This document shows, piece after piece, positions 53,830 through 64,000 of a DNA stretch of 64,000 nt. Positions within the stretch are counted from its first letter, which is position 1, and each line of letters begins with the position of its first letter. A program made the position numbers and the translations under genes. The notes under the pieces were generated by a model. The model ran no database searches and was not told the origin of the DNA. It worked only from the letters and a program-made list of their open reading frames with translations. Source of the stretch: Catenulispora pinistramenti (lineage in GTDB: Bacteria > Actinomycetota > Actinomycetes > Streptomycetales > Catenulisporaceae); NCBI RefSeq assembly GCF_018274385.1, contig NZ_JAAFYZ010000020.1:1-64000 (forward strand), written 5' to 3'.

Positions 53830-55056
53830 CTATGCGATGTCGAGTAGTCGGGCGAGCTGTGAGAGCTGCGACGCCGGGTCGGTCCGGCAAGCGCGGACTT
53901 GGGCTAGGACAAGGTCCCGGGCATCTGGGCTGTAGAGAATGGTCTCTCGGGACTCGGCGATGGAAGCGAGCAGCGCTGGGAGTACTCGTGCCCCGTCGCC
54001 GGCCTGGTGGTGGCTGCGTGCGACGTCGATGAAGTGCTGAGCGCGGCGATTGGTCGATGGAATCTCGCTGGGATCGAGGCTCGCGGCTCTATCGGTGGCC
54101 ACGGTCGCGTTGCCGGTCTCGACATCCAGGACGACGCCATAGACCGCTACGTTCGCGTTGCTGAACTGTGTGTGTGGGTGCTGATACCCGTGGGGCAACC
54201 GTCCCGCGATCGTGGCTGCTTCATCCCAGTACCGCCATGCATCGGCAGGCTGGCGGGCGCGTGCCGCGCCAATCGCGGCGAACAGCATCAGCGAGCCCCG
54301 CAATGCCGTCGAGCGTGGGGTCGTCGCGACTGGAAGGCGCTCTCTCGCGCACAGCGCGATTTCTGACGCCTCGCCCGGCTCGCCAGCGGCGAGGGAAGTC
54401 ATGGCGGAGGCCCACCCCGCGAGTGCCAACAGTTCGGGATTGTCGGCCTGGTCCGCGGCCAAGAGTGCGCGATCAGTACATCGCGTGGCGAGTGCCGGGG
54501 CGGTGACGCAGAATGCGAATCGTTGCGCTAGTAGATACACGTGTGTGAGCAGTTTGTGCGCTGCTCGCCGTTCGTTGTCCGGCGCCGAGCGGGCTAGCAC
54601 GATCGAGTCAGTGAGAAGGTCGGGCAGCAGGGCACCAAGAGCCATGTATTGGGCTCGTGATACTCGCCATGCCGTCCACGCATGTTGAACGCGTTCCTGT
54701 AGCGACTCCACAGTGCACCGAGGGCCGTCGGCGGCCGGCGCGAGGACGGCCAGGCTCAATGCGAGGCGTACTTCAGCGACCGCAGGATGCTCGGGCACTC
54801 CGGTTGTGCGGAGAGGACGCAGGTCGAACCCGACAAGCATCGAGGCGTCGCTCATACCGAGTGCGTGTGCCAGGTTGCTCAAATTGGACAGCCGCTCAGC
54901 GCCCCGTCCCTCGACTTCAAGAAGTCGGAGCCATTCCTCAGATCGACCGACGAGCTCGGCTAGTGCCCTGCGTGACATGCCGTGTCTTTGCCGGTGCCAA
55001 CTCACTCGTTCGCCAGTCGTGAGTGGGTCAGCGCTACGCTTTTCGGACGACGGCAT
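53830..55056 (-). CDS. XRE-family regulator with TPR-like C-terminal domain
   Basis: A 408-residue protein. HTH at about residues 15-70 (VSWHRQRHGMSRRALAELVG, RSEEWLRLLEVEGRG), followed by about 320 residues of helical repeats (AHKLLTHVYLLAQRFAFCVT, QADNPELLALAGWASAMTSL). This is a very common actinomycete regulator type with unknown ligand. It is divergent from a flavoprotein gene, with 120 bases between the starts that include a short palindrome, and it precedes the STAND gene on the same strand. Confidence 0.82.
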   Translation of the reverse strand: MPSSEKRSADPLTTGERVSWHRQRHGMSRRALAELVGRSEEWLRLLEVEGRGAERLSNLSNLAHALGMSDASMLVGFDLRPLRTTGVPEHPAVAEVRLALSLAVLAPAADGPRCTVESLQERVQHAWTAWRVSRAQYMALGALLPDLLTDSIVLARSAPDNERRAAHKLLTHVYLLAQRFAFCVTAPALATRCTDRALLAADQADNPELLALAGWASAMTSLAAGEPGEASEIALCARERLPVATTPRSTALRGSLMLFAAIGAARARQPADAWRYWDEAATIAGRLPHGYQHPHTQFSNANVAVYGVVLDVETGNATVATDRAASLDPSEIPSTNRRAQHFIDVARSHHQAGDGARVLPALLASIAESRETILYSPDARDLVLAQVRACRTDPASQLSQLARLLDIA

Positions 55057-55081
55057 CGGACACCACCCGGGGCATGGATAA

Positions 55082-55096
55082 CGGTAAGTGGTACCG
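55082..55096. promoter_or_regulatory. Short palindrome between divergent XRE and flavoprotein genes
   Basis: CGGTAAGTGGTACCG has 5-bp arms (CGGTA/TACCG) around AGTGG, 26 bases before the XRE start and 81 bases before the flavoprotein start. A candidate operator for the XRE protein; short enough to be chance. Confidence 0.3.
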
Positions 55097-55176
55097 ATGT
55101 TACGATGCGCGACGTCCGCCCCGGAACCCTCGTGCCCTGTTTTTCTTTACGGCCGTGCGGTTGGAAGGATACTGTC

Positions 55177-55731
55177 TTGCTCGAAAAGCCCGTTCTCTAC
55201 GCCATCGGTTGTGGTGGCTACCCGTCGGAGTTCATGCCGGAGCTCGTACGGCACGCACAGGGTGAGGGATGGGACGTCTGTGTGATCGGGACCCGTATGG
55301 GGATGCGGTTTCTTGATACCGAGTTGCTCCGAGAGCTAACCGGATATCCCGTTCGTGACGACTATAAGAATCCTAATGAACCTGACGTCCTGCCGGATGC
55401 GGATGCGTTCGTGGTAGCGCCCGCGACATTCAACACCGTCAACAAAGTAGCCGGCGGTATCTCTGACAACTTGGCCCTTGGCCTGGTCAATGAAGCAATC
55501 GGCATGGGGAAGCCTGTCATCCTGGCACCTTGGCCGAACCAGGAGCTGGTCAAGCATCCGGCGTTTCCTCGAAGCGTCGAGCTGCTTGCGGAGGCCGGCG
55601 TACGCTTCGTGCTCGACCGGGCCGCCCTTCCACTTCCTGCATCAGGCAGGCCGGGGGCTGCCACGTTCCCGTGGGCTCAGGTCTATTCCGCGCTCGCGGT
55701 CGCGAGGGACGAGGTCCTGTCGAGTCGCTGA
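55177..55731 (+). CDS. Flavoprotein of the phosphopantothenoylcysteine-decarboxylase fold
   Basis: A 184-residue protein with the homo-oligomeric FMN-binding fold: VLYAIGCGGYPSEFMPELVR at the N-terminus, ADAFVVAPATFNTVNKVAGG (FMN loop) and ISDNLALGLVNEAIGMGKPV. Family members bind FMN and include decarboxylases and oxidoreductases; stand-alone copies beside XRE regulators are frequent in actinomycetes with unknown role. I choose TTG 55177, 8 bases after GGAAGGA; upstream codons in the same frame read through the non-coding gap. Confidence 0.78.
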   Translation: MLEKPVLYAIGCGGYPSEFMPELVRHAQGEGWDVCVIGTRMGMRFLDTELLRELTGYPVRDDYKNPNEPDVLPDADAFVVAPATFNTVNKVAGGISDNLALGLVNEAIGMGKPVILAPWPNQELVKHPAFPRSVELLAEAGVRFVLDRAALPLPASGRPGAATFPWAQVYSALAVARDEVLSSR

Positions 55732-55868
55732 ACGTGCTCCCGGCCGACCCGTGCGACATCACGTTCGATGGTCGGCCGGGCTTGAGCCTCTTCATGCGAT
55801 CGGGTGAAATCTCAGCGTGCTTCCTTGAAGCAGCGCGGTTAGCTGCGACTAAAGGTGCTTGGCGGGTA

Positions 55869-55926
55869 GTATCTTCGGCAGCTGAGAAAGAAGATACCCC
55901 GGCCGGTGCTACCAACACCGCCGGGG
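55869..55926. repeat. Two consecutive hairpins upstream of a winged-helix-like gene
   Basis: Hairpin 1: GTATCTTC (55869-55876) with GAAGATAC (55890-55897), a perfect 8-bp stem around 13 bases. Hairpin 2 follows at once: CCCCGG-CC-GGTG (55897-55908) with CACC-G-CCGGGG (55916-55926). They end 28 bases before the ATG at 55955. Neither is followed by a U-run. Candidates: attenuator or translational control leader, operator pair, or part of a replication origin. Confidence 0.65.
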
Positions 55927-55954
55927 CGTGGCACCAGGAGTAAAGGGCTCCCGA

Positions 55955-56845
55955 ATGCGTATCCATCGTAGCGCGCGAGTGCGCTTTTTCACGACGTTGG
56001 GCAACGAAGTCCTTCGAGACAGCCGCTTGAGCTTCTGTGCTCGCGGCATCCTCGCCTACCTGCTCTCGCAACCTGACGGGAAGCGCGACGACATCCGGAC
56101 GTTGGCGGAACGGACACCGGAGGGACGGGAGCGCGTAGCTTCTGCGATGCGGGAGTTGGAGAGGCATGGCTATCTCAAGAGGACGAAGAAGCGTACGTCC
56201 GAAGGGCACATCTACACCGAGGTAGAGGTGTTCGACGGTCCAGGCGGGCCGTCGTCCCAGCTCAGCCCGGAGACCGAGCTTCCGGCCTCCGGTGGGCCGA
56301 CTACCGGTCCAGACGGCGATCAACCCGTGAAAGATCGGGGGAAAGAACCCACCCACCCGGCGCCTTCTGCGGAGGACGGAGAAGACGGGCGGGAGGGGGA
56401 ATGCGACGAGGAGACGAGAGCGAGCGTCGAGCTGCTTGCCCGCGTGGCACGTACGGAGCCGCAGCTGTCAGTGGGGCGGGCCGACGTGGTGCGCCTCGCG
56501 CCGCTGGTGACGGAGTGGCGGCGGCGTGGTGCCTCAGAGCTTCACGTCGTGGGCTCGCTGACGTCTGGCCTGCCGCGGGCCGGGGTGTATCACCCGGCGC
56601 GGTTCATCGAGACGCGGCTGATCGCGAAGATGCCAGTGGAGCGGTGCGCCGCACCGGAGCGGTTGGAGTGCGGCGGGTGCGGCATTCCTGTTCCTGCTGC
56701 TGGCCTTTGCCGATCCTGCCGGGAAGCTCGGCCGACGGAGGTCGGGGCTGCAACGGAAGATCACGTGCTCGCCCGAGGCGTGGCGATGGCCCGTGCCGCC
56801 CTGCGTGGCCTGTCGCTGGACGTCGGGAAGCCCGCCTTGGCATGA
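55955..56845 (+). CDS. Winged-helix-like protein with zinc-ribbon-like C-terminus
   Basis: A 296-residue protein. Residues about 1-95 form a winged-helix-like DNA-binding region of the type in plasmid replication or DnaD-like proteins (NEVLRDSRLSFCARGILAYL, RTLAERTPEGRERVASAMRE, LERHGYLKRTKKR). A disordered acidic middle (about 95-165) follows, then a helical segment, and a cysteine cluster CGGCGIPVPAAGLCRSC (CxxC-CxxC) near residue 250 that may bind zinc. Such proteins are frequent on Streptomyces plasmids; initiator or regulator roles cannot be told apart here. Start ATG 55955 (AAAGGG 7 bases before) is preferred over an upstream GTG-type start at 55928. Convergent with the relaxase gene, 3 bases apart. 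Confidence 0.7.
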   Translation: MRIHRSARVRFFTTLGNEVLRDSRLSFCARGILAYLLSQPDGKRDDIRTLAERTPEGRERVASAMRELERHGYLKRTKKRTSEGHIYTEVEVFDGPGGPSSQLSPETELPASGGPTTGPDGDQPVKDRGKEPTHPAPSAEDGEDGREGECDEETRASVELLARVARTEPQLSVGRADVVRLAPLVTEWRRRGASELHVVGSLTSGLPRAGVYHPARFIETRLIAKMPVERCAAPERLECGGCGIPVPAAGLCRSCREARPTEVGAATEDHVLARGVAMARAALRGLSLDVGKPALA

Positions 56846-56848
56846 GCC

Positions 56849-59800
56849 TCACTGCCCGGGCCTGGGCCCGCGTTGTGGGTTCGGCGGGATCCGGGGCGGG
56901 GGCTGCCCGTCGGGGTTTGGCGTGTGCTTCGGTGCCTCAGATCTGCGGACTCTGGGCGCCGGTTGCTGACTTGTATGGACCGGCTGAGTGCGGTGCAGCT
57001 TTGCCCGACCGCGAGCACTCGGAGGCCTCGGACCCCGTCGTCCGGCGGGGTCGGACTCTGGAACGTCCAGGTGCCCATTCTCGGCCAGGATGGCTGCGAG
57101 TTGGTGGAGGTAGACGGGCTGATCTGCGTCGACAGAGGGCTCGCGTACGTCGCCGAGCCAGTCTTGGCCGAGTCGTTTGGCGAGTTCGACGCCGATGCGG
57201 TTCTGCTCTTCGACGCCCAGGGTCCGGTAGTGGTCAGCCGCCAGCCTCCCCCAGGCCGGATTGGCATCCGGGCGCGCCCCGCGTAGCGCCAGGAGGGATG
57301 CGGCGGCCACCCAGTAGGCGCGGTGGCCGACCCGTCCGCTCTCGGGGTATGGACCGAGGGGGTGGTCTGGGTCGTCGTCGGCGACTCGGTACTGGTCGCG
57401 GTAGGCGGCTATGACGGCGAGGTGACTTAGCCAGACCTCGCGGCTGGCCGGATCGGTGGGTTCCGCGGTGAGGCACGCGGTCCACGCTGGTCTTTCGGAT
57501 GCGGTCGTCTGTGCTAGCTGGCCAACGCGACGACGGATCAGCTCGGCCCGGGTGTCCAGGTATGGCTGCCACTGTAGGTCGGCACCGCGCCGTATGGTGC
57601 GCAGCCAAGGAGGAAGAAGCGGATCCTCGGCGCGATGAGCAGCGACCTGCAACCGCGCAGCCAACGACGCCAGCGTGATCCGACCTGGTCGGGTCTCGGC
57701 GGACTCAAGGGCGTCGGCGAGAGCAGCGGCGGGTTCAGTGCCGGCCTGTTCCAACTGCGTCAGCGCACGCGTGATTCGTCGCCATATAGAGCGCGAATTG
57801 TTGCTCGTGCCAGCGGTTTGCGCGTCAAGGTAGTGGTGGACGGCGAGGGCGACAGCCTGGCAGACCGAGGTCCCAGCGCGGAACGTTCTCTGATCGATCA
57901 CGGCGTCGAGCGACGTGGTGGGGTCGAGCCCGAGGGCGTCCGCGCGCCGCAGAGCAAGTACCAGCGTCGGCCACGCGGCGTCCTCGCGAGCCTGGTTTGC
58001 ACGGACGGATCCAAGCACCGCGCTCACTGCGTCCTCGTAGAACTGCTCGTGGTCGTCATAAGAGTGGGCTCGCGGGACAGAGACGGTCGACGAGCGGGTT
58101 GGCCCGGCGTCAGCCGCCAACGTGGGGGCGAGCTCGCCCAGCAACAAGCGGTAGCGAATCTCGTCGGCGGCGTCGGCCACCGGTGTCGGCTCCGCATCTA
58201 TCACTCGGCGCAGACGCCACGAGATGACTTGAGCCAGGGACTCCGCAGTGTGCAGCTCGCGGCGGCGCACCGTGGTGTTGAGGAGAGCTGGAACGTCCCA
58301 TCCCGCAGCATCGGCGTCGCGCAGAGCTCGCAGCACGGCGTGCCATGCCGAGTCGCTGGTGATCTCCTCGGCAACGTCGGGCAGTACTCTCTCGACCATC
58401 TGCCGGTAGTGGGCGTCGGTGGCCACGTCGAGCGCGTGGTCGTACCGGGGCACGAGGCCGGACAGAGATTCGGCTTCGGCGAACGAGGTCCGGATCTGCT
58501 CGGTCGCGGAGAGCTCCGCGGTTTCGCGGGCGACCACATGCTCGAGGATTTCGCGAGCGGCATAGGCATCCTGGTCGAACTTCACAGCGTCCACGTGTTC
58601 GTCCTCATCCAGGCTCGCGAGCTCGTGGGTGGCGACGTACAAGACCGTCCCTTGGCGGGCGCGGGAGACGATGACGTAGAAGTTCTCCCGTCCCATCTCT
58701 TCGGTGATGAGAGCGTGGCAGGCGTCCACGGTTGAGCCCTGGGCGCGGTGTGCGGTGGTGGCGTAGAGCAGTTCGACGTTGGTTGCGACGTACCCCGGCG
58801 GGAGCAGCACCTGGCCGCGATGCTCCAAGTGCTGGACGGTCAAGGCGCCGTTTTCGTGGCGCTCGACTACCTCCCAGGCATCGCCGTTCTTCACGAAGTC
58901 GCGCACCCCGGAGCGGAGCCGCCGGTCGTTGTCCCGGGTGACGATGAGGTCCCGGGCCCCTGCGAGGTTGCCGTCGTGGAGACGCACGCCTTCGGCCTCG
59001 ACCTGCCTCGCGGCGACTCGATCGGCTCGCGCTCGGGCGCACAGCTCGGCGACGTTCGCGTTGGACGTGGCGACCATCAGTGCTTTGCGCCCGGCCAGCA
59101 TGTCCGCTTTCCAGCCTGCGTACGCCTGCTCGGTCATGCCCTGGCGGGAGCCGTGCCGAATCCGTCCCGCGTCCTGATAGAAGTCGAGCCCGGCCGCGTC
59201 GCCGACGCGGATCTTGAGTGTTGCCTCGGCCTCGATCGGGTCGGCGAAGCGGTAGAGCGTGGACAGCTCCACAGCCCCGCACTCGTTGGCTATGAGCCTC
59301 AGCGCGCCACCCGACTCCACGGCACCGAGCTGGCGGTAGTCGCCCAACAGGCGCACGACCGCACCGCGTTCGGCCGCGATGGTCACGAGCCGATCGAGGT
59401 TCATAGTGCCGGCCATGCCGGCCTCGTCGACCAAGACGACGTCGCCCGGGTTCAGGGCGAAGAACCCGACCTCACGCGGCACGTTCTGCCCTCGTGCTAA
59501 CGCTTCGGCGTGTGGCCCCTTAGTCCATTCCCACAGGAACTTGTGCAGGTTCTCGGCATCGGCCCCCAAGTCCGCGGCCAGCACGCTTGCCGCGGACGCG
59601 GAGGTGGCCAGCGGCACGAGTCGCTTCTCGCCAGCATCGATCACCTCCGACAGGGCCTTCATAGCCGTGGTCTTTCCGGCTCCGCCCGGGCCGATTCCCG
59701 CCATTAGAAGTCGTCCGTCGCACGCAAATGCCTTCACCAGCGCACGCTGGCCTGGGTCGAGACTTTCGCCGGTCCGGTGTTCATGGTCGGCCACCACCAA

Positions 59801-61426
59801 GTCGGTGGTCTGCCCGTCCACCGCGACCGCTGTCTGATACTTGGCGGCCTCGACCAGCCGGGCCTCGGCCTCCAATACGGCTTGGCTGGTGTACCGCTCG
59901 GCGCCGTGTTGCGTGAACACCGACGATCCGTCCGATCGGCGCAGTGCGGTCGGCTCGGCCACCGATTCCGGCGGTTCGGTGGAGATCGACCACGTGGAGA
60001 GCGCCGCGTCCACGACCGCCGAGACCGCAATTTCCTGCTCAGTCGGAGTCGTGAACCGCGTTCCTCGCAGTTCTCGTTGCACCTGCGCCAGGACGCTCCA
60101 GCGGGTCCATGTCGCGTGCTGTTCCTGTACTTCGGCCACGACTCGGCCGGCAAGTTCTGCGACGTCCAGCTGGGCGCAGTTGATCGGCTTCGACTTGCGC
60201 CTGCCGCCTATGGGGACGATCGCCGTCACCTTGGTGAGGGCCTTCGAACCGAAGGTCTCTGCCAGGTCGGCGCGCCACTCATCTCGCATCTTTGACCACG
60301 CTCGCGGAGGCTTCTTGCCATTGCGGGTCGCCAACGTCGCTTGTTGGGCGAGCTCGTGAGCCGCTGGCAGCGACGGATCACGCCCATGCGTGGCGCGAAA
60401 CTCGTCCACCAGCCGCTTGTACTCTGCCTCGATGTCGGAGCGCCGGCGGGTGAAGTGCGACAGTACTCTCGACGGGAAGTCCTTGATCTCGCGCACCGGC
60501 TCGCGCTTGTCCAGGGTGTCTGGTCGGGGCTCGAATTCGAGCCCGAGGCGGGCGTGTAGTTCGTTTTCCAGCACCGTGTTGTAGAGCTCGGAGGCAGCCA
60601 CAGTGATGCGGTAGAAGCTGCGGGCGTCGAGTGCCTGCCACTTTCCGTTGGTCCCCAAGACTTTGCTGGAAACCGCGACATGGGAGTGGAGGTTCGGCTC
60701 GCCCAACCGGTTGTCCGCATGGTCGAAAACGGCGGCGATCAGGCCGTGAGTCTCGATCTGGGCCTGGCCCGAGGAGCCCGTGCGGGTGAGCGCGGCATTC
60801 TCTTCCAGCAGCTTCAGTGCGGTGTCTCGGGCGGCGTAGTGGGACTGCTCGATCGCGTCGCGTACCCATGGGCGCGGATCGAGACCCCAGAGCCGGGAGA
60901 CCGAAGAAACCGGGGTGAACACGAGGTCGAAGCCAGCCACGGCCCGCCGCTGGCGTCGCGCCTCCTCCCGACGGATCTTCTTCTCCTCCGCTGCGGTTGG
61001 GGCACGGCCGACCTCGGTGCGGATTGCCTCCAACCGGCCTGATACTCGCTCGTCGAACGGCTCAAGATGCTTGTAGTCGGGGAACGGGCGGCCGAGGCGT
61101 GCTGCCTTCAGCGCCAGCTGGTTGACCTTCTCCAGCTGTCCTTCCGACATGCCGGCTTCGACGTGCTCGCGCTGGTAGTCGGCGATGATGTTCGCGGCGT
61201 TCGGGTGCAAACCCTGACCGAACAGGGCCGTCATCTGCTGCTCGGACACCTGCCCGGCCAACCCCAAGTCGGTCAGTCCCGAACCCATCCAGATCCCCGG
61301 TGGATTGCCGGTCTCGGTGTAATACCTCGCTGCGGCCTTGCCCCGTTCAGGACTGGTGTCTCCTGCGGCTACCTGCCTGGTCAGGTAGGTGTAGCCGTCG
61401 CCAGCGGTGATCTTGTGGATCGTCAT
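56849..61426 (-). CDS. MobF (TrwC/TraA-like) conjugative relaxase-helicase
   Basis: A 1525-residue protein. The N-terminal relaxase (about residues 1-420) has tyrosines 12 and 14 in TAGDGYTYLTRQV and the metal motif FDHADNRLGEPNLHSHVAVS (HxH near 245). The helicase half shows Walker A AGIGPGGAGKTTAMKAL (about 580), DVVLVDEAGMAGTM (Walker B), RLLGDYRQLGAVESGGALRL and the superfamily 1 C-terminal AHRAQGSTVDACHALIT plus ENFYVIVSRARQGTVLYVAT. About 500 residues of unrecognised helical sequence follow, ending in a proline/arginine-rich disordered tail. It nicks oriT, remains bound to the 5' end and unwinds the strand for transfer through the coupling protein. A GTG at 61429 directly precedes ATG 61426. 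Confidence 0.92.
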   Translation of the reverse strand: MTIHKITAGDGYTYLTRQVAAGDTSPERGKAAARYYTETGNPPGIWMGSGLTDLGLAGQVSEQQMTALFGQGLHPNAANIIADYQREHVEAGMSEGQLEKVNQLALKAARLGRPFPDYKHLEPFDERVSGRLEAIRTEVGRAPTAAEEKKIRREEARRQRRAVAGFDLVFTPVSSVSRLWGLDPRPWVRDAIEQSHYAARDTALKLLEENAALTRTGSSGQAQIETHGLIAAVFDHADNRLGEPNLHSHVAVSSKVLGTNGKWQALDARSFYRITVAASELYNTVLENELHARLGLEFEPRPDTLDKREPVREIKDFPSRVLSHFTRRRSDIEAEYKRLVDEFRATHGRDPSLPAAHELAQQATLATRNGKKPPRAWSKMRDEWRADLAETFGSKALTKVTAIVPIGGRRKSKPINCAQLDVAELAGRVVAEVQEQHATWTRWSVLAQVQRELRGTRFTTPTEQEIAVSAVVDAALSTWSISTEPPESVAEPTALRRSDGSSVFTQHGAERYTSQAVLEAEARLVEAAKYQTAVAVDGQTTDLVVADHEHRTGESLDPGQRALVKAFACDGRLLMAGIGPGGAGKTTAMKALSEVIDAGEKRLVPLATSASAASVLAADLGADAENLHKFLWEWTKGPHAEALARGQNVPREVGFFALNPGDVVLVDEAGMAGTMNLDRLVTIAAERGAVVRLLGDYRQLGAVESGGALRLIANECGAVELSTLYRFADPIEAEATLKIRVGDAAGLDFYQDAGRIRHGSRQGMTEQAYAGWKADMLAGRKALMVATSNANVAELCARARADRVAARQVEAEGVRLHDGNLAGARDLIVTRDNDRRLRSGVRDFVKNGDAWEVVERHENGALTVQHLEHRGQVLLPPGYVATNVELLYATTAHRAQGSTVDACHALITEEMGRENFYVIVSRARQGTVLYVATHELASLDEDEHVDAVKFDQDAYAAREILEHVVARETAELSATEQIRTSFAEAESLSGLVPRYDHALDVATDAHYRQMVERVLPDVAEEITSDSAWHAVLRALRDADAAGWDVPALLNTTVRRRELHTAESLAQVISWRLRRVIDAEPTPVADAADEIRYRLLLGELAPTLAADAGPTRSSTVSVPRAHSYDDHEQFYEDAVSAVLGSVRANQAREDAAWPTLVLALRRADALGLDPTTSLDAVIDQRTFRAGTSVCQAVALAVHHYLDAQTAGTSNNSRSIWRRITRALTQLEQAGTEPAAALADALESAETRPGRITLASLAARLQVAAHRAEDPLLPPWLRTIRRGADLQWQPYLDTRAELIRRRVGQLAQTTASERPAWTACLTAEPTDPASREVWLSHLAVIAAYRDQYRVADDDPDHPLGPYPESGRVGHRAYWVAAASLLALRGARPDANPAWGRLAADHYRTLGVEEQNRIGVELAKRLGQDWLGDVREPSVDADQPVYLHQLAAILAENGHLDVPESDPAGRRGPRPPSARGRAKLHRTQPVHTSQQPAPRVRRSEAPKHTPNPDGQPPPRIPPNPQRGPRPGQ

Positions 61427-61429
61427 CAC

Positions 61430-61863
61430 GACCGGATCACCGTCCTTCGCGGGCGGCTGCGTCGGCTAGTCCCGCGTAGCGAACCCATGCTCAGATTGTC
61501 TGCAAAAGGTGTGTTAGCAGAAATATAGGGCATTCTGTTCACGTGGGCTAACGCCGCGATGTCTATGCACTGGTTAGAGATAGTTTGCACGTGATCTTGC
61601 GCAGGTCAGATTGATCTTGCGCCAACGGTGTGGGATCGCATGGCCGAGGCAGGGGGTCGGCTGACGACTTCCGCCATGAGCTCGGCGGGGTACGTGCCGA
61701 GGCAGACTCCCCGTCTCGAACCGGGCGGCTTTCGGGCGCACATTTGTGCGGCGCTTGATCTGATGAACCACGAGCCGGGCACTTCAGTCCGGAGCTGTCC
61801 TGTCAGGTTTGTCAGGGCGGGTCGAAGAGACGCGCCGAAGGACCGAGTAGTCTCGACCGCACC
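61430..61863. other. Repeat-bearing gap behind the relaxase start: oriT candidate
   Basis: 434 bases without a gene. The part 61495-61620 is clearly richer in A and T than its surroundings (TTGTCTGCAAAAGGTGTGTT, AGATAGTTTGCAC). It contains a GTTAGC / GCTAAC inverted pair (61513-61518 and 61547-61552), direct repeats at 61592-61622, and further on a 14-bp palindrome CGCACATTTGTGCG (61737-61750). MobF oriT sites usually lie next to the relaxase gene, so this is the first place to look. The nic site cannot be identified by eye. Confidence 0.4.
61592..61622. repeat. Direct repeat TGATCTTGCGC, two copies
   Basis: TGATCTTGCGC occurs at 61592-61602 and 61612-61622, start to start 20 bp, i.e. about two helical turns, so a protein could bind both on one face. 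It lies in the oriT candidate gap, 170 bases behind the relaxase start. Confidence 0.7.
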
Positions 61864-62364
61864 ATGGCGAAGAAGCCCTCCCCGCTCCGGAACCGGCTGG
61901 CGCGGCATCAGGCCGACCGGCACTCTAGCGTGTACACCGCGCTGCTGGCCCCGACCGTCGAAGACCGGTCGCTCTTCGACGTCGCCTGGGACGCCCTGAG
62001 GCGATCCGATCTATTCGACATCGCCAACGCCGATGCCCTAGCCGAGCGGTTCACCTGGCTACCCGCCTTCGACTCGACCGCCGCCACCGGCTGGATCGCC
62101 GGAATCCTCAGCGGCTCGCTGGCCTACCCGGCAGCCACCGACCCGCTGTCCGATCCCAAGCTGTGCGCTCTTGAGGCCGACGTGATCGCGGCGCTCGGGC
62201 CGGAGGCGCGGTGGCACGCCAACGGCGACCATCCGCTGCCCGGCTTCGTCCCTGCCGGGAAGTCGCAGGGTTGGCGGCCGATCACCACAGCGACCTTCGA
62301 TCGCGCGGTCGTCGCACGGGGGAGCGGAGTCGATCTCGTGCTGGCGTGCACGGACGAGGACTGA
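61864..62364 (+). CDS. Hypothetical protein
   Basis: A 166-residue protein starting MAKKPSPLRNRLARHQADRH, with DRSLFDVAWDALRRSDLFDI and TWLPAFDSTAATGWIAGILS, and a C-terminal beta-rich end (DRAVVARGSGVDLVLACTDE). Its codon use is strongly GC-ending, which supports a real gene. Family not recognised. It lies on the other side of the oriT candidate from the relaxase and is followed by the CRISPR-like relic. Confidence 0.55.
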   Translation: MAKKPSPLRNRLARHQADRHSSVYTALLAPTVEDRSLFDVAWDALRRSDLFDIANADALAERFTWLPAFDSTAATGWIAGILSGSLAYPAATDPLSDPKLCALEADVIAALGPEARWHANGDHPLPGFVPAGKSQGWRPITTATFDRAVVARGSGVDLVLACTDED

Positions 62365-62389
62365 ACGACGCGGTCACAGTGCCGTCGGC

Positions 62390-62478
62390 AGACCAGCCCC
62401 GCATGCGCGGGGACCGCGACTGGGTCTGGAGGCTCCAGGCGTGCGTGCAGGGACCAGCCCCGTATGCGCGGGGACCGC
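62390..62478. CRISPR. Two-repeat type I-E-like CRISPR relic
   Basis: Two 28-base repeats, 62390-62417 and 62451-62478, both ending in ATGCGCGGGGACCGC and each with the short palindrome CCCCGC/T-A-TGCGCGGGG, differ at only two positions. Start-to-start distance is 61 bp, the unit length of type I-E arrays (repeat 28-29, spacer 32-33). One 33-base spacer lies between (62418-62450). No third repeat is seen on either side and no cas genes are in the window. The remaining 270 bases to the next feature show nothing further. Confidence 0.7.
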
Positions 62479-62751
62479 ACTGCCTGACCTGCCGACCTAC
62501 CTGAACGCAGTGCAGCAATCCTTGGGTTTGAAAGAATCCGACATAAATGTCATTCGGGCCATTCCGCGCCCTCCTGAACCTTGCGCCGTTGAGCCGCCTT
62601 ACACCAAGCGGTCTTGGTGGTTGACGGTGCTGCGGTGGGTAGTTCCGCACCCTCGCGGATGAGTGTATGCCGTTGCGGTCGAGGGCTTGGAAGGCGAGTC
62701 TATTGACGACGACGCCCACCACTGAATGTCTCCACGCTGCGGGGGGGGAGG

Positions 62752-63063
62752 ATGGCCAGAGGACGGGTTCGAGCTTTCGATGCGGCCCGCTGGGCGGACC
62801 CCGGCCGGGGCTACCGGGCCGCGTTCGACCTGTGGCGGGGGCCGTTCCTGGCCGACGTGGTCGCCGAGGGCTGGCTGGCCGACGAGGCCAGCCGGTTCGA
62901 CGAGCTGCGCTGCCGTACCGCCGAGGGCTGGATCGGTGCCGAGCTGCGGCTGGGCCGCCAGGACGAGGTGATCCCTGTGGACGATCGCGTAATTCCCGAG
63001 GCTCACGATCACGTAATTCCCTGGGCGTCCAAGGGATCTAGGCTTGCGGGGAGGCCGCGGTGA
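62752..63063 (+). pseudogene. Fragment of a SARP-type BTAD domain
   Basis: The reading from ATG 62752 gives FDLWRGPFLADVVAEGWLAD, then EASRFDELRCRTAEGWIGAE and LRLGRQDEVIP, which is the characteristic helix pair of the bacterial transcriptional activator domain (alternating TPR-like helices of AfsR/SARP regulators). The winged-helix part before it and the ATPase or remaining BTAD after it are missing, so this is a relic. G-run GGGGGGGGAGG just before it is fortuitous or a slippage site. Its end overlaps the convergent gene at 63038. Confidence 0.55.
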
Positions 63064-63667
63064 GGCGTTCGGTGAGGTGGTTCGCGAAGAGCTGGTACTC
63101 CGCTGCGATGGGGATCGTCGCGTCGTTCCCGTAGGCGGCCAATCCGTCGGCGAGACGGTCACGGGCCTCTTGGAGCTCACCACGGAGCAGGTGCAGGGCC
63201 GGGATGAGCAGGTTCTTGCGGTCGGGGTTGGCGACGAAATGCGTCGTGCGCAGTGCCGCCAGCAGGGCGTCGGAATCGGCGTAGCGGCGCGCGAACGGCA
63301 AACCGTAGGCATCGACCAGGTCTCGAAGGCGGCCGGCCGCCGGCTCAGCTTGCTCTGAGGTGGCGATTTCGAGCTGCAGGAAACGGTTCTCCGGCGTGAG
63401 GTAACCGACCGGGCGGCTCAAGGTGCCGGTGGTGGGCGGGGTCCCGAGGAGTTCGGCGACGAGTTGTTCCAGCGGCTCGTAGTGCAGGCCGACGACCGGG
63501 TTCACCTGCAGCGGCAGTGCTCGGGTGGCCTTGTTCAGTCCGAGCCAGGCATGGAAGCCGTCGCCGAGATCCAGGGTGTAGATGTCGCCGCTGCGTTTGC
63601 GCCATCCGGCCGCGGTCATCCGGTCTTTGGCTGCGGCACGGAAGGCGCTGATCAGGTCACGCATCAT
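63038..63667 (-). CDS. Hypothetical protein
   Basis: A 209-residue protein starting MMRDLISAFRAAAKDRMTAA, with GDIYTLDLGDGFHAWLGLNK, a beta-rich middle and a helical C-terminal half (RDLVDAYGLPFARRYADSDA, LLRGELQEARDRLADGLAAY). The opening resembles proteins that start with a short helix followed by a beta-sheet around a WRKR-x-GDIY motif, often seen as solitary actinomycete hypotheticals. Function unknown. No signal peptide or membrane segment. ATG 63667 follows GATG with weak ribosome-site match. Confidence 0.6.
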   Translation of the reverse strand: MMRDLISAFRAAAKDRMTAAGWRKRSGDIYTLDLGDGFHAWLGLNKATRALPLQVNPVVGLHYEPLEQLVAELLGTPPTTGTLSRPVGYLTPENRFLQLEIATSEQAEPAAGRLRDLVDAYGLPFARRYADSDALLAALRTTHFVANPDRKNLLIPALHLLRGELQEARDRLADGLAAYGNDATIPIAAEYQLFANHLTERLTAASPQA

Positions 63668-63713
63668 CGGGCCAGAGTATGCGGCGCCCGATGATCGCCC
63701 GTGACCGGTTGCC

Positions 63714-64000
63714 CTACTTGATCGTGGGCTCCTCCGCCTTGGCGGCGGGGTTCTTCGGTCGCTTGTTCGGCCGGTAGCTGGGGCCGTTCATGATGACCTG
63801 GTGACTGGTGTTGATCAGTCTGTCCAGGAGTGACTCGGCGACGACCGGGTTCGGGAACAGCGGATACCAGTCGGATGGTGCCCTGTTGCTCGTGACGATC
63901 AGGCTCCTGCCCTGGCGTTCGCTGACCAGCTCGTAGAGGTCGTCGGCCTGGGGCGCGGTCATCTGGCGCATCGCGAAGTCGTCGAGGATGAGCACGTCGG
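63714..64000 (-). CDS. istB: IstB-like ATPase of an IS21-type element, 5' part beyond window
   Basis: The last 93 residues of an IstB/DnaC-type ATPase reach the window edge: DVLILDDFAMRQMTAPQADD-type Walker B region at the edge, then LIVTSNRAPSDWYPLFPNPV (sensor and a typical W-Y/F-P stretch) and LLDRLINTSHQVIMNGPSYR. The C-terminal lysine-rich tail ends at 63714. IstB loads onto DNA and guides the IS21 transposase. The start and the transposase gene must lie outside the window, so this is a partial gene at the edge and not evidence for an intact IS. Confidence 0.85.
   Translation of the reverse strand, partial: DVLILDDFAMRQMTAPQADDLYELVSERQGRSLIVTSNRAPSDWYPLFPNPVVAESLLDRLINTSHQVIMNGPSYRPNKRPKNPAAKAEEPTIK

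What the first reader, a model, noticed from the sequence alone, without database searches (positions are those of the whole stretch)
62390..62478. Orphan type I-E-like CRISPR unit: two repeats, one spacer
Two 28-base repeats with 26 of 28 identical positions, an internal palindrome and a period of exactly 61 bp point to a type I-E unit and not to a random duplication. With no cas genes it could be a decayed array or a mini-array carried by a mobile element that would rely on host Cas proteins. The element may thereby target competitors.
Basis: seen in the sequence. Interest (0 to 1): 0.55.

Follow-up and report, generated by a model that had tools for sequence, protein, structure and literature searches.

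The report
Orphan one-spacer type I-E CRISPR array
A leftover, one-spacer piece of a common bacterial immune-memory array (type I-E CRISPR), still with its leader but without cas genes beside it; it is real but an ordinary kind of thing in this group of soil bacteria.

Summary
In detail: two near-identical type I-E repeats 61 bp apart, absent from 100 shuffled windows and, at up to 3 mismatches, found nowhere else in the 11.46-Mb genome. The unit reads on the minus strand: leader about 62600-62479, repeat 62478-62450, 32-nt spacer 62449-62418, repeat 62417-62389. No cas match was found on the 78-kb contig. The genome has two other I-E loci, but their repeats differ at 9-12 of 29 positions. The same spacer, one base changed, sits in the same 34-kb block of C. 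pinisilvae, so the array looks frozen. No protospacer was found. Best reading: an orphaned, probably dormant I-E array in a relaxase-bearing accessory region. Use in trans is possible but unshown; targeting of competitors has no support. Of 14 short I-E arrays examined in the order, 13 had no cas match in the stretch fetched. Ordinary; new member of a known kind.

The parts
62450..62478 (-). leader-proximal type I-E repeat, 29 nt (GCGGTCCCCGCGCATACGGGGCTGGTCCC)
   Evidence: 4 mismatches of 29 to the consensus repeat of the C. acidiphila array (G005), with an identical 8-nt 3' part (crRNA handle)
62418..62449 (-). single spacer, 32 nt; no protospacer found
   Evidence: only itself and the C. 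pinisilvae copy at up to 3 mismatches; no credible viral or plasmid target; best 23 of 32
62389..62417 (-). leader-distal type I-E repeat, 29 nt (GCGGTCCCCGCGCATGCGGGGCTGGTCTG), changed at its 3' end as terminal repeats often are
   Evidence: the remark on terminal repeats is general knowledge
62479..62600 (-). I-E leader; ATGTC at -66 (62544-62540) and GCAGGTC at -14 (62492-62486) before the first repeat; 57% G+C against 66% for the window
   Evidence: homology with the C. acidiphila leader is shown for about 62479-62528, the outer limit near 62600 is approximate
56849..61429 (-). context: relaxase with TrwC and AAA_30 domains (MobF type)
   Evidence: Pfam; plasmid matches annotated MobF relaxase
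61864..62364 (+). context: 166-aa ORF of unknown family, convergent with the array
   Evidence: no Pfam match; 43.5% identical ORFs on 3 Streptomyces plasmids
62752..63063 (+). context: fragment of a BTAD-domain protein
   Evidence: profile positions 18-87 of 146
63714..63998 (-). context: end of the IstB gene of an IS21-type element that continues beyond the window

Best explanation
It is a genuine type I-E CRISPR array cut down to leader, repeat, one spacer, repeat, and separated from its cas genes. It belongs to the I-E lineage seen, with cas genes, in C. acidiphila and in Streptomyces. Inferred history: an ancestor, or an incoming conjugative element, carried a full I-E locus; cas genes and most spacers were lost, and the stub was inherited by this strain and C. 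pinisilvae. Inferred present state: dormant. Any transcript from the leader would give one crRNA whose repeat parts do not match the two I-E systems now in the cell. Shown: array form, leader homology, absence of cas matches on the contig, mismatch to the host repeats, no spacer turnover between two species. Not shown: expression, processing, how it arrived.
For: Repeat pair and 61-bp period beyond chance. Leader plus first repeat align at 78% with the leader end of a C. acidiphila array lying beside I-E cas genes. Leader motifs at exact positions in other I-E arrays of the order: GCAGGTC-like near -14 in 23 of 28, ATGTC at exactly -66 in 9 of 28; the second lies outside the stretch that selected the 27 loci other than C. 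acidiphila. No cas match on the 78-kb contig with the G000 A and B, G005, G012 and pSP01 cas proteins. Repeats differ from the host's own at 9-12 of 29 positions and at 3-4 of the 8 handle positions. Same spacer with 1 difference in 90 nt in C. pinisilvae, within 34.3 kb at 99.05% identity. The only Cas6e found in G006 is 51% and 22% identical to the two of this genome, so the cas complements differ while this stub stayed. PMC5294841 (passages) uses the same two signs, foreign repeat and no spacer turnover, to call an isolated CRISPR non-functional.
Against: The host has two I-E cas sets, the repeat stem CCCCGC/GCGGGG is shared with array A, and the leader ends of host arrays A and B carry the same or nearly the same -14 motif, so use in trans is not excluded. 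Both repeats and the leader are nearly intact, and the stub has changed by 1 in 90 nt between the two species; but the whole 34-kb block is 99% identical, so that conservation shows no selection. The -66 motif is absent from the C. acidiphila leader itself, and the motifs were chosen after looking at the sequences.
Confidence: 0.75

Rival explanations
1. A functional mini-array used in trans: the crRNA is made and loaded by one of the host's two I-E systems, so the accessory region gains one immunity.
For: Two I-E cas loci in the genome; intact leader; same stem as array A; 11 of 14 genomes with comparable short arrays also hold a Cas6e gene elsewhere.
Against: Repeats differ from those of systems A and B at 9-12 of 29 positions, including 3-4 of 8 handle positions. 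No spacer turnover. No protospacer. In 3 of the 14 genomes with comparable short arrays no Cas6e was found at all.
Confidence: 0.15
2. An RNA anti-CRISPR (Racr) or repeat decoy: the element makes a crRNA mimic that soaks up Cas proteins of a host.
For: Repeat-bearing unit without cas genes next to a relaxase gene.
Against: A decoy should resemble the host's repeats; these do not. It has two repeats, a normal-length spacer and a true array leader, whereas Racrs are described as solitary repeat units in viral genomes (PMC10651486, start of abstract in the listing).
Confidence: 0.03
3. Not CRISPR: REP-like or operator-like palindromes that happen to lie 61 bp apart.
For: Only two copies, no cas nearby, one spacer only, so the usual CRISPR criteria of many spacers fail; the RNA fold is unremarkable.
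Against: Homologous leader and repeats in cas-bearing arrays; no dispersed copies; same I-E repeat type in C. pinisilvae, S. zagrosensis and S. kronopolitis.
Confidence: 0.02
4. A young array: a leader plus a single repeat, moved in by an element, that gained one spacer from a host Cas1-Cas2, rather than the stub of a longer array.
For: A leader with a single repeat exists in the order (L121), and the leader ends resemble those of host arrays A and B.
Against: The two repeats differ at 3 of 29 positions; a fresh duplication would be identical.
Confidence: 0.05

Closest known systems
Type I-E CRISPR array of Catenulispora acidiphila (G005 C1, about 4,438,330-4,439,800; adjacent I-E cas genes)
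   Same: Leader homologous over at least 50 nt, repeat differs at 4-5 of 29, handle of the first repeat identical, period 61
   Different: About 18-24 repeats and cas genes alongside; here 2 repeats and no cas match on the contig
Orphan (isolated) CRISPR arrays as defined by Zhang and Ye 2017, PMC5294841 (passages)
   Same: No cas within 10 kb, repeat unlike those of the genome's own systems, no spacer turnover between relatives
   Different: Nothing that sets it apart; very short
Two-repeat I-E unit on a linear plasmid of Streptomyces anulatus (NZ_CP108693.1, L108 6024 and 6085)
   Same: Leader with GCAGGTC at -14, two repeats, one spacer, no cas in the 7.2 kb read
   Different: Other spacer; lies about 1.1 kb from the end of the plasmid record
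Complete I-E system on the MOBF conjugative plasmid pSP01 (NC_021056.1)
   Same: Leader with the same -14 motif and similar repeats (5-6 of 29 differ) on a MobF-type element
   Different: Full cas operon and 22 repeats
Virus-borne mini-arrays and RNA anti-CRISPRs (Racr)
   Same: Few repeats without cas genes
   Different: No viral context: 0 exact matches of the repeat core in IMG/VR and no match of leader plus unit in the phage collection; host repeats not mimicked

Membership tests
Type I-E CRISPR array | 28-29-nt repeat with a CCCCGC/GCGGGG-like stem, about 61-bp period, 32-33-nt spacer | tested here: met
Type I-E CRISPR array | Leader next to the first repeat, homologous to leaders of arrays beside I-E cas genes | tested here: met
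Type I-E CRISPR array | Several different spacers | tested here: not met
   one spacer only
Type I-E CRISPR array | Transcribed and processed into crRNA | not testable with these tools
   no RNA data; no sigma-70-like promoter in the simple scan, which does not cover all promoter types
Complete CRISPR-Cas locus | cas genes within 10 kb | tested here: not met
   no tblastn match on the 78-kb contig with five cas sets
Orphan (isolated) CRISPR array | True array without cas genes nearby, repeat unlike the genome's other arrays, spacers unchanged between relatives | tested here: met
   spacer compared in one relative only, since 2 of 14 family genomes hold it
RNA anti-CRISPR (Racr) | Repeat mimics the host's repeat | tested here: not met
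   9-12 of 29 positions differ from both host repeat types
Array that targets competing elements | Spacer matches a plasmid or phage | tested here: not met
   no credible match in phages, plasmids, IMG/VR (exact sub-patterns of 16-18 nt) or genomes; the collections are incomplete
Dispersed REP-like palindrome | Many copies across the genome | tested here: not met
   two copies only, at up to 3 mismatches

The most novel reading that the evidence does not exclude
Leader-bearing I-E units with one or a few spacers are a recurrent cargo of actinomycete plasmids, conjugative regions and chromosome ends. They would serve as portable landing pads or single-shot guides for whatever I-E machinery the host has. 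The unit here, the S. anulatus plasmid unit and the short cas-less arrays of Streptomyces would be instances.
Probability: 0.1. Interest if true: 0.5.

Novelty: new member of a known kind. Interest (0 to 1): 0.15.

Why it matters
Taken alone it matters little: it is a real but ordinary orphan array. It shows that a two-repeat pair can be assigned to type I-E by its leader even without cas genes or spacer diversity. It also adds a case in which two near species share a fossil spacer while their Cas6e genes differ. If short leader-bearing units prove to be used in trans by distant I-E systems, a set of natural examples would already be at hand in Streptomyces.

Tried and rejected
Spacer target. 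Blastn of 46 nt (spacer plus 7 nt on each side) gave no phage match and only 12 plasmid records at E 3-9, none covering 80% of the query. Exact 16-18-nt pieces of the spacer region gave 1, 5 and 5 IMG/VR contigs; the best of these 11 matches 23 of 32 positions, so they are chance. At up to 3 mismatches only this genome and C. pinisilvae hold it: 2 of 14 family genomes, 2 of 391 order genomes, 1 of 394 class genomes (part of these repeat the order sample).

REP-like or operator repeats: rejected. Known RNA family: none near by; one sub-threshold match elsewhere in 55000-64000. Promoter and terminator scan: 0 found. RNA fold: not distinctive. tRNA as integration site: 0 in the window. Cas remnants: none on the contig.

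Vertical inheritance against transfer: the 34-kb block shared with C. pinisilvae is 99.05% identical; one other stretch of 6.8 kb is 97% identical. One yardstick is too little to decide.

Selection bias to keep in mind: the 28 leaders are C. acidiphila plus 27 loci of the order search, which lists 45 matching genomes and was capped at 30 loci. The query included the -14 motif, so 23 of 28 is inflated; the -66 motif was outside the matched stretch for those 27. Of the 14 short arrays, L110, L113 and L118 were cut by contig ends, L119 has cas-like matches, L114 and L122 lack the -14 motif before the short array, L115 has it with one change, L121 has one repeat only, and L122 has a second array of 17 repeats 4 kb away.

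Not followed: the Nocardia farcinica match (H14).

Full report
The pair of repeats is real. Copies at 62391-62417 and 62452-62478 are 96% identical over 27 nt at a spacing of 61; over 28 nt, 26 positions agree. One such pair is in the window and none in 100 dinucleotide-preserving shuffles. The repeat core occurs nowhere else in the 11.46-Mb genome at up to 3 mismatches.

Orientation and parts. On the minus strand the order is leader (about 62600-62479), repeat (62478-62450), 32-nt spacer (62449-62418), repeat (62417-62389). The first repeat differs from the C. acidiphila consensus at 4 of 29 positions, none of them in the 8-nt handle.

Source. The window's genome shares a genus with G005 and G006. 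G005 has one contig of 10,467,782 bp, the published size of C. acidiphila (PMC3035231, passages). The G006 contig with the same unit is 54,314 bp, as is NZ_JAAFZA010000052.1 of C. pinisilvae NH11, which holds two repeats 61 bp apart. The names rest on these lengths.

The leader is the main evidence. The region upstream of the first repeat aligns with the leader of a C. acidiphila array: 74% over 140 columns for leader, repeat, spacer and repeat, and 78% over 78 nt for leader end and first repeat. That array lies beside I-E cas genes. Across the order 45 of 391 genomes match leader end plus repeat. Among 28 leaders examined, 23 have a GCAGGTC-like motif near -14 and 9 have ATGTC at exactly -66, as the orphan does. 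The first count is inflated by selection; the second motif lies outside the matched stretch for the 27 loci other than C. acidiphila, but it was picked after looking, and C. acidiphila itself lacks it.

Cas genes. No match on the 78-kb contig was found with cas proteins of host loci A and B, C. acidiphila, G012 and pSP01. The genome holds two I-E loci: A on C112 with Cas1e, 5e, 6e, 7e, 8e, 11e and a Cas3-like match, and B on C201 with Cas1e, 3e, 5e, 6e, 7e, 8e, 11e. Both have long arrays whose repeats differ from the orphan at 9-12 of 29 positions. Cas2 was not tested.

Frozen state. C. pinisilvae has the same unit with 1 difference in 90 nt, the first base of the spacer, in a block 99.05% identical over 34.3 kb. 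The single Cas6e found in G006 is 51% and 22% identical to those of the window's genome. PMC5294841 (passages) judges an isolated CRISPR non-functional by the same two signs: a foreign repeat and unchanged spacers.

Setting. A relaxase with TrwC and AAA domains ends 960 bp from the array; MobF relaxases are its plasmid matches, none above 60% identity. An IS21 pair, a DUF2637 protein and an integrase-like gene lie further on in the contig. No tRNA was found in the window. This is a plausible mobile region without defined ends. A complete I-E system with the same leader motif sits on the MOBF conjugative plasmid pSP01, so arrival on such an element is credible but not shown. In PMC9071438 (passages), 207 orphan arrays are reported on plasmids, shorter on average than cas-associated arrays.

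How ordinary it is. All 14 of the 28 loci with chains of at most 6 repeats were fetched with up to 10 kb on each side. 13 of 14 have no cas match in the stretch fetched, three of them cut by contig ends; 11 of 14 have the strict leader motif within a base of -14, and two besides the window's unit have exactly two repeats behind that motif (L109, L116). 11 of the 14 genomes have Cas6e elsewhere and 3 have none. An S. anulatus plasmid has the same two-repeat, one-spacer form with leader.

Function. Most likely none at present (0.75). Use in trans by a host I-E system is the main rival (0.15): the stem is shared with array A and leader ends are alike, but the handles differ and no target was found. 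Targeting of competitors has no support. No claim is made that this unit is absent from print.

Noticed in passing
L108 6024-6113 (Streptomyces anulatus plasmid NZ_CP108693.1, near its start): A two-repeat, one-spacer I-E unit with leader about 1.1 kb from the end of a linear plasmid record, no cas in 7.2 kb.
   Followed up: partly
G334 C1: 2310-2361 and 7276999-7277050 (L110): The same leader and I-E array start lies about 2.3 kb from both ends of a 7,279,370-bp contig, in opposite orientation, which looks like a terminal inverted repeat; no Cas6e found in that genome.
   Followed up: no
L022 (G005) and L026 (G012): Two Catenulispora genomes have nearly the same I-E repeat, yet their Cas6e proteins are only 22% identical.
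   Followed up: no
L009 1111-1200: In host array B a repeat-spacer-repeat stretch of 90 nt recurs at a spacing of 61, so a spacer seems to be duplicated.
   Followed up: no
window 62981-63026: Two 22-nt direct repeats 24 bp apart (86% identical) near the end of the BTAD fragment.
   Followed up: no
window 61864-62364: A 166-aa ORF without Pfam match, convergent with the array, has 43.5% identical full-length relatives on three Streptomyces plasmids.
   Followed up: partly
L119 (G139 C67): The one short array of 14 with cas-like matches nearby (Cas1 and Cas3 queries), while the genome's Cas6e lies on another contig.
   Followed up: no
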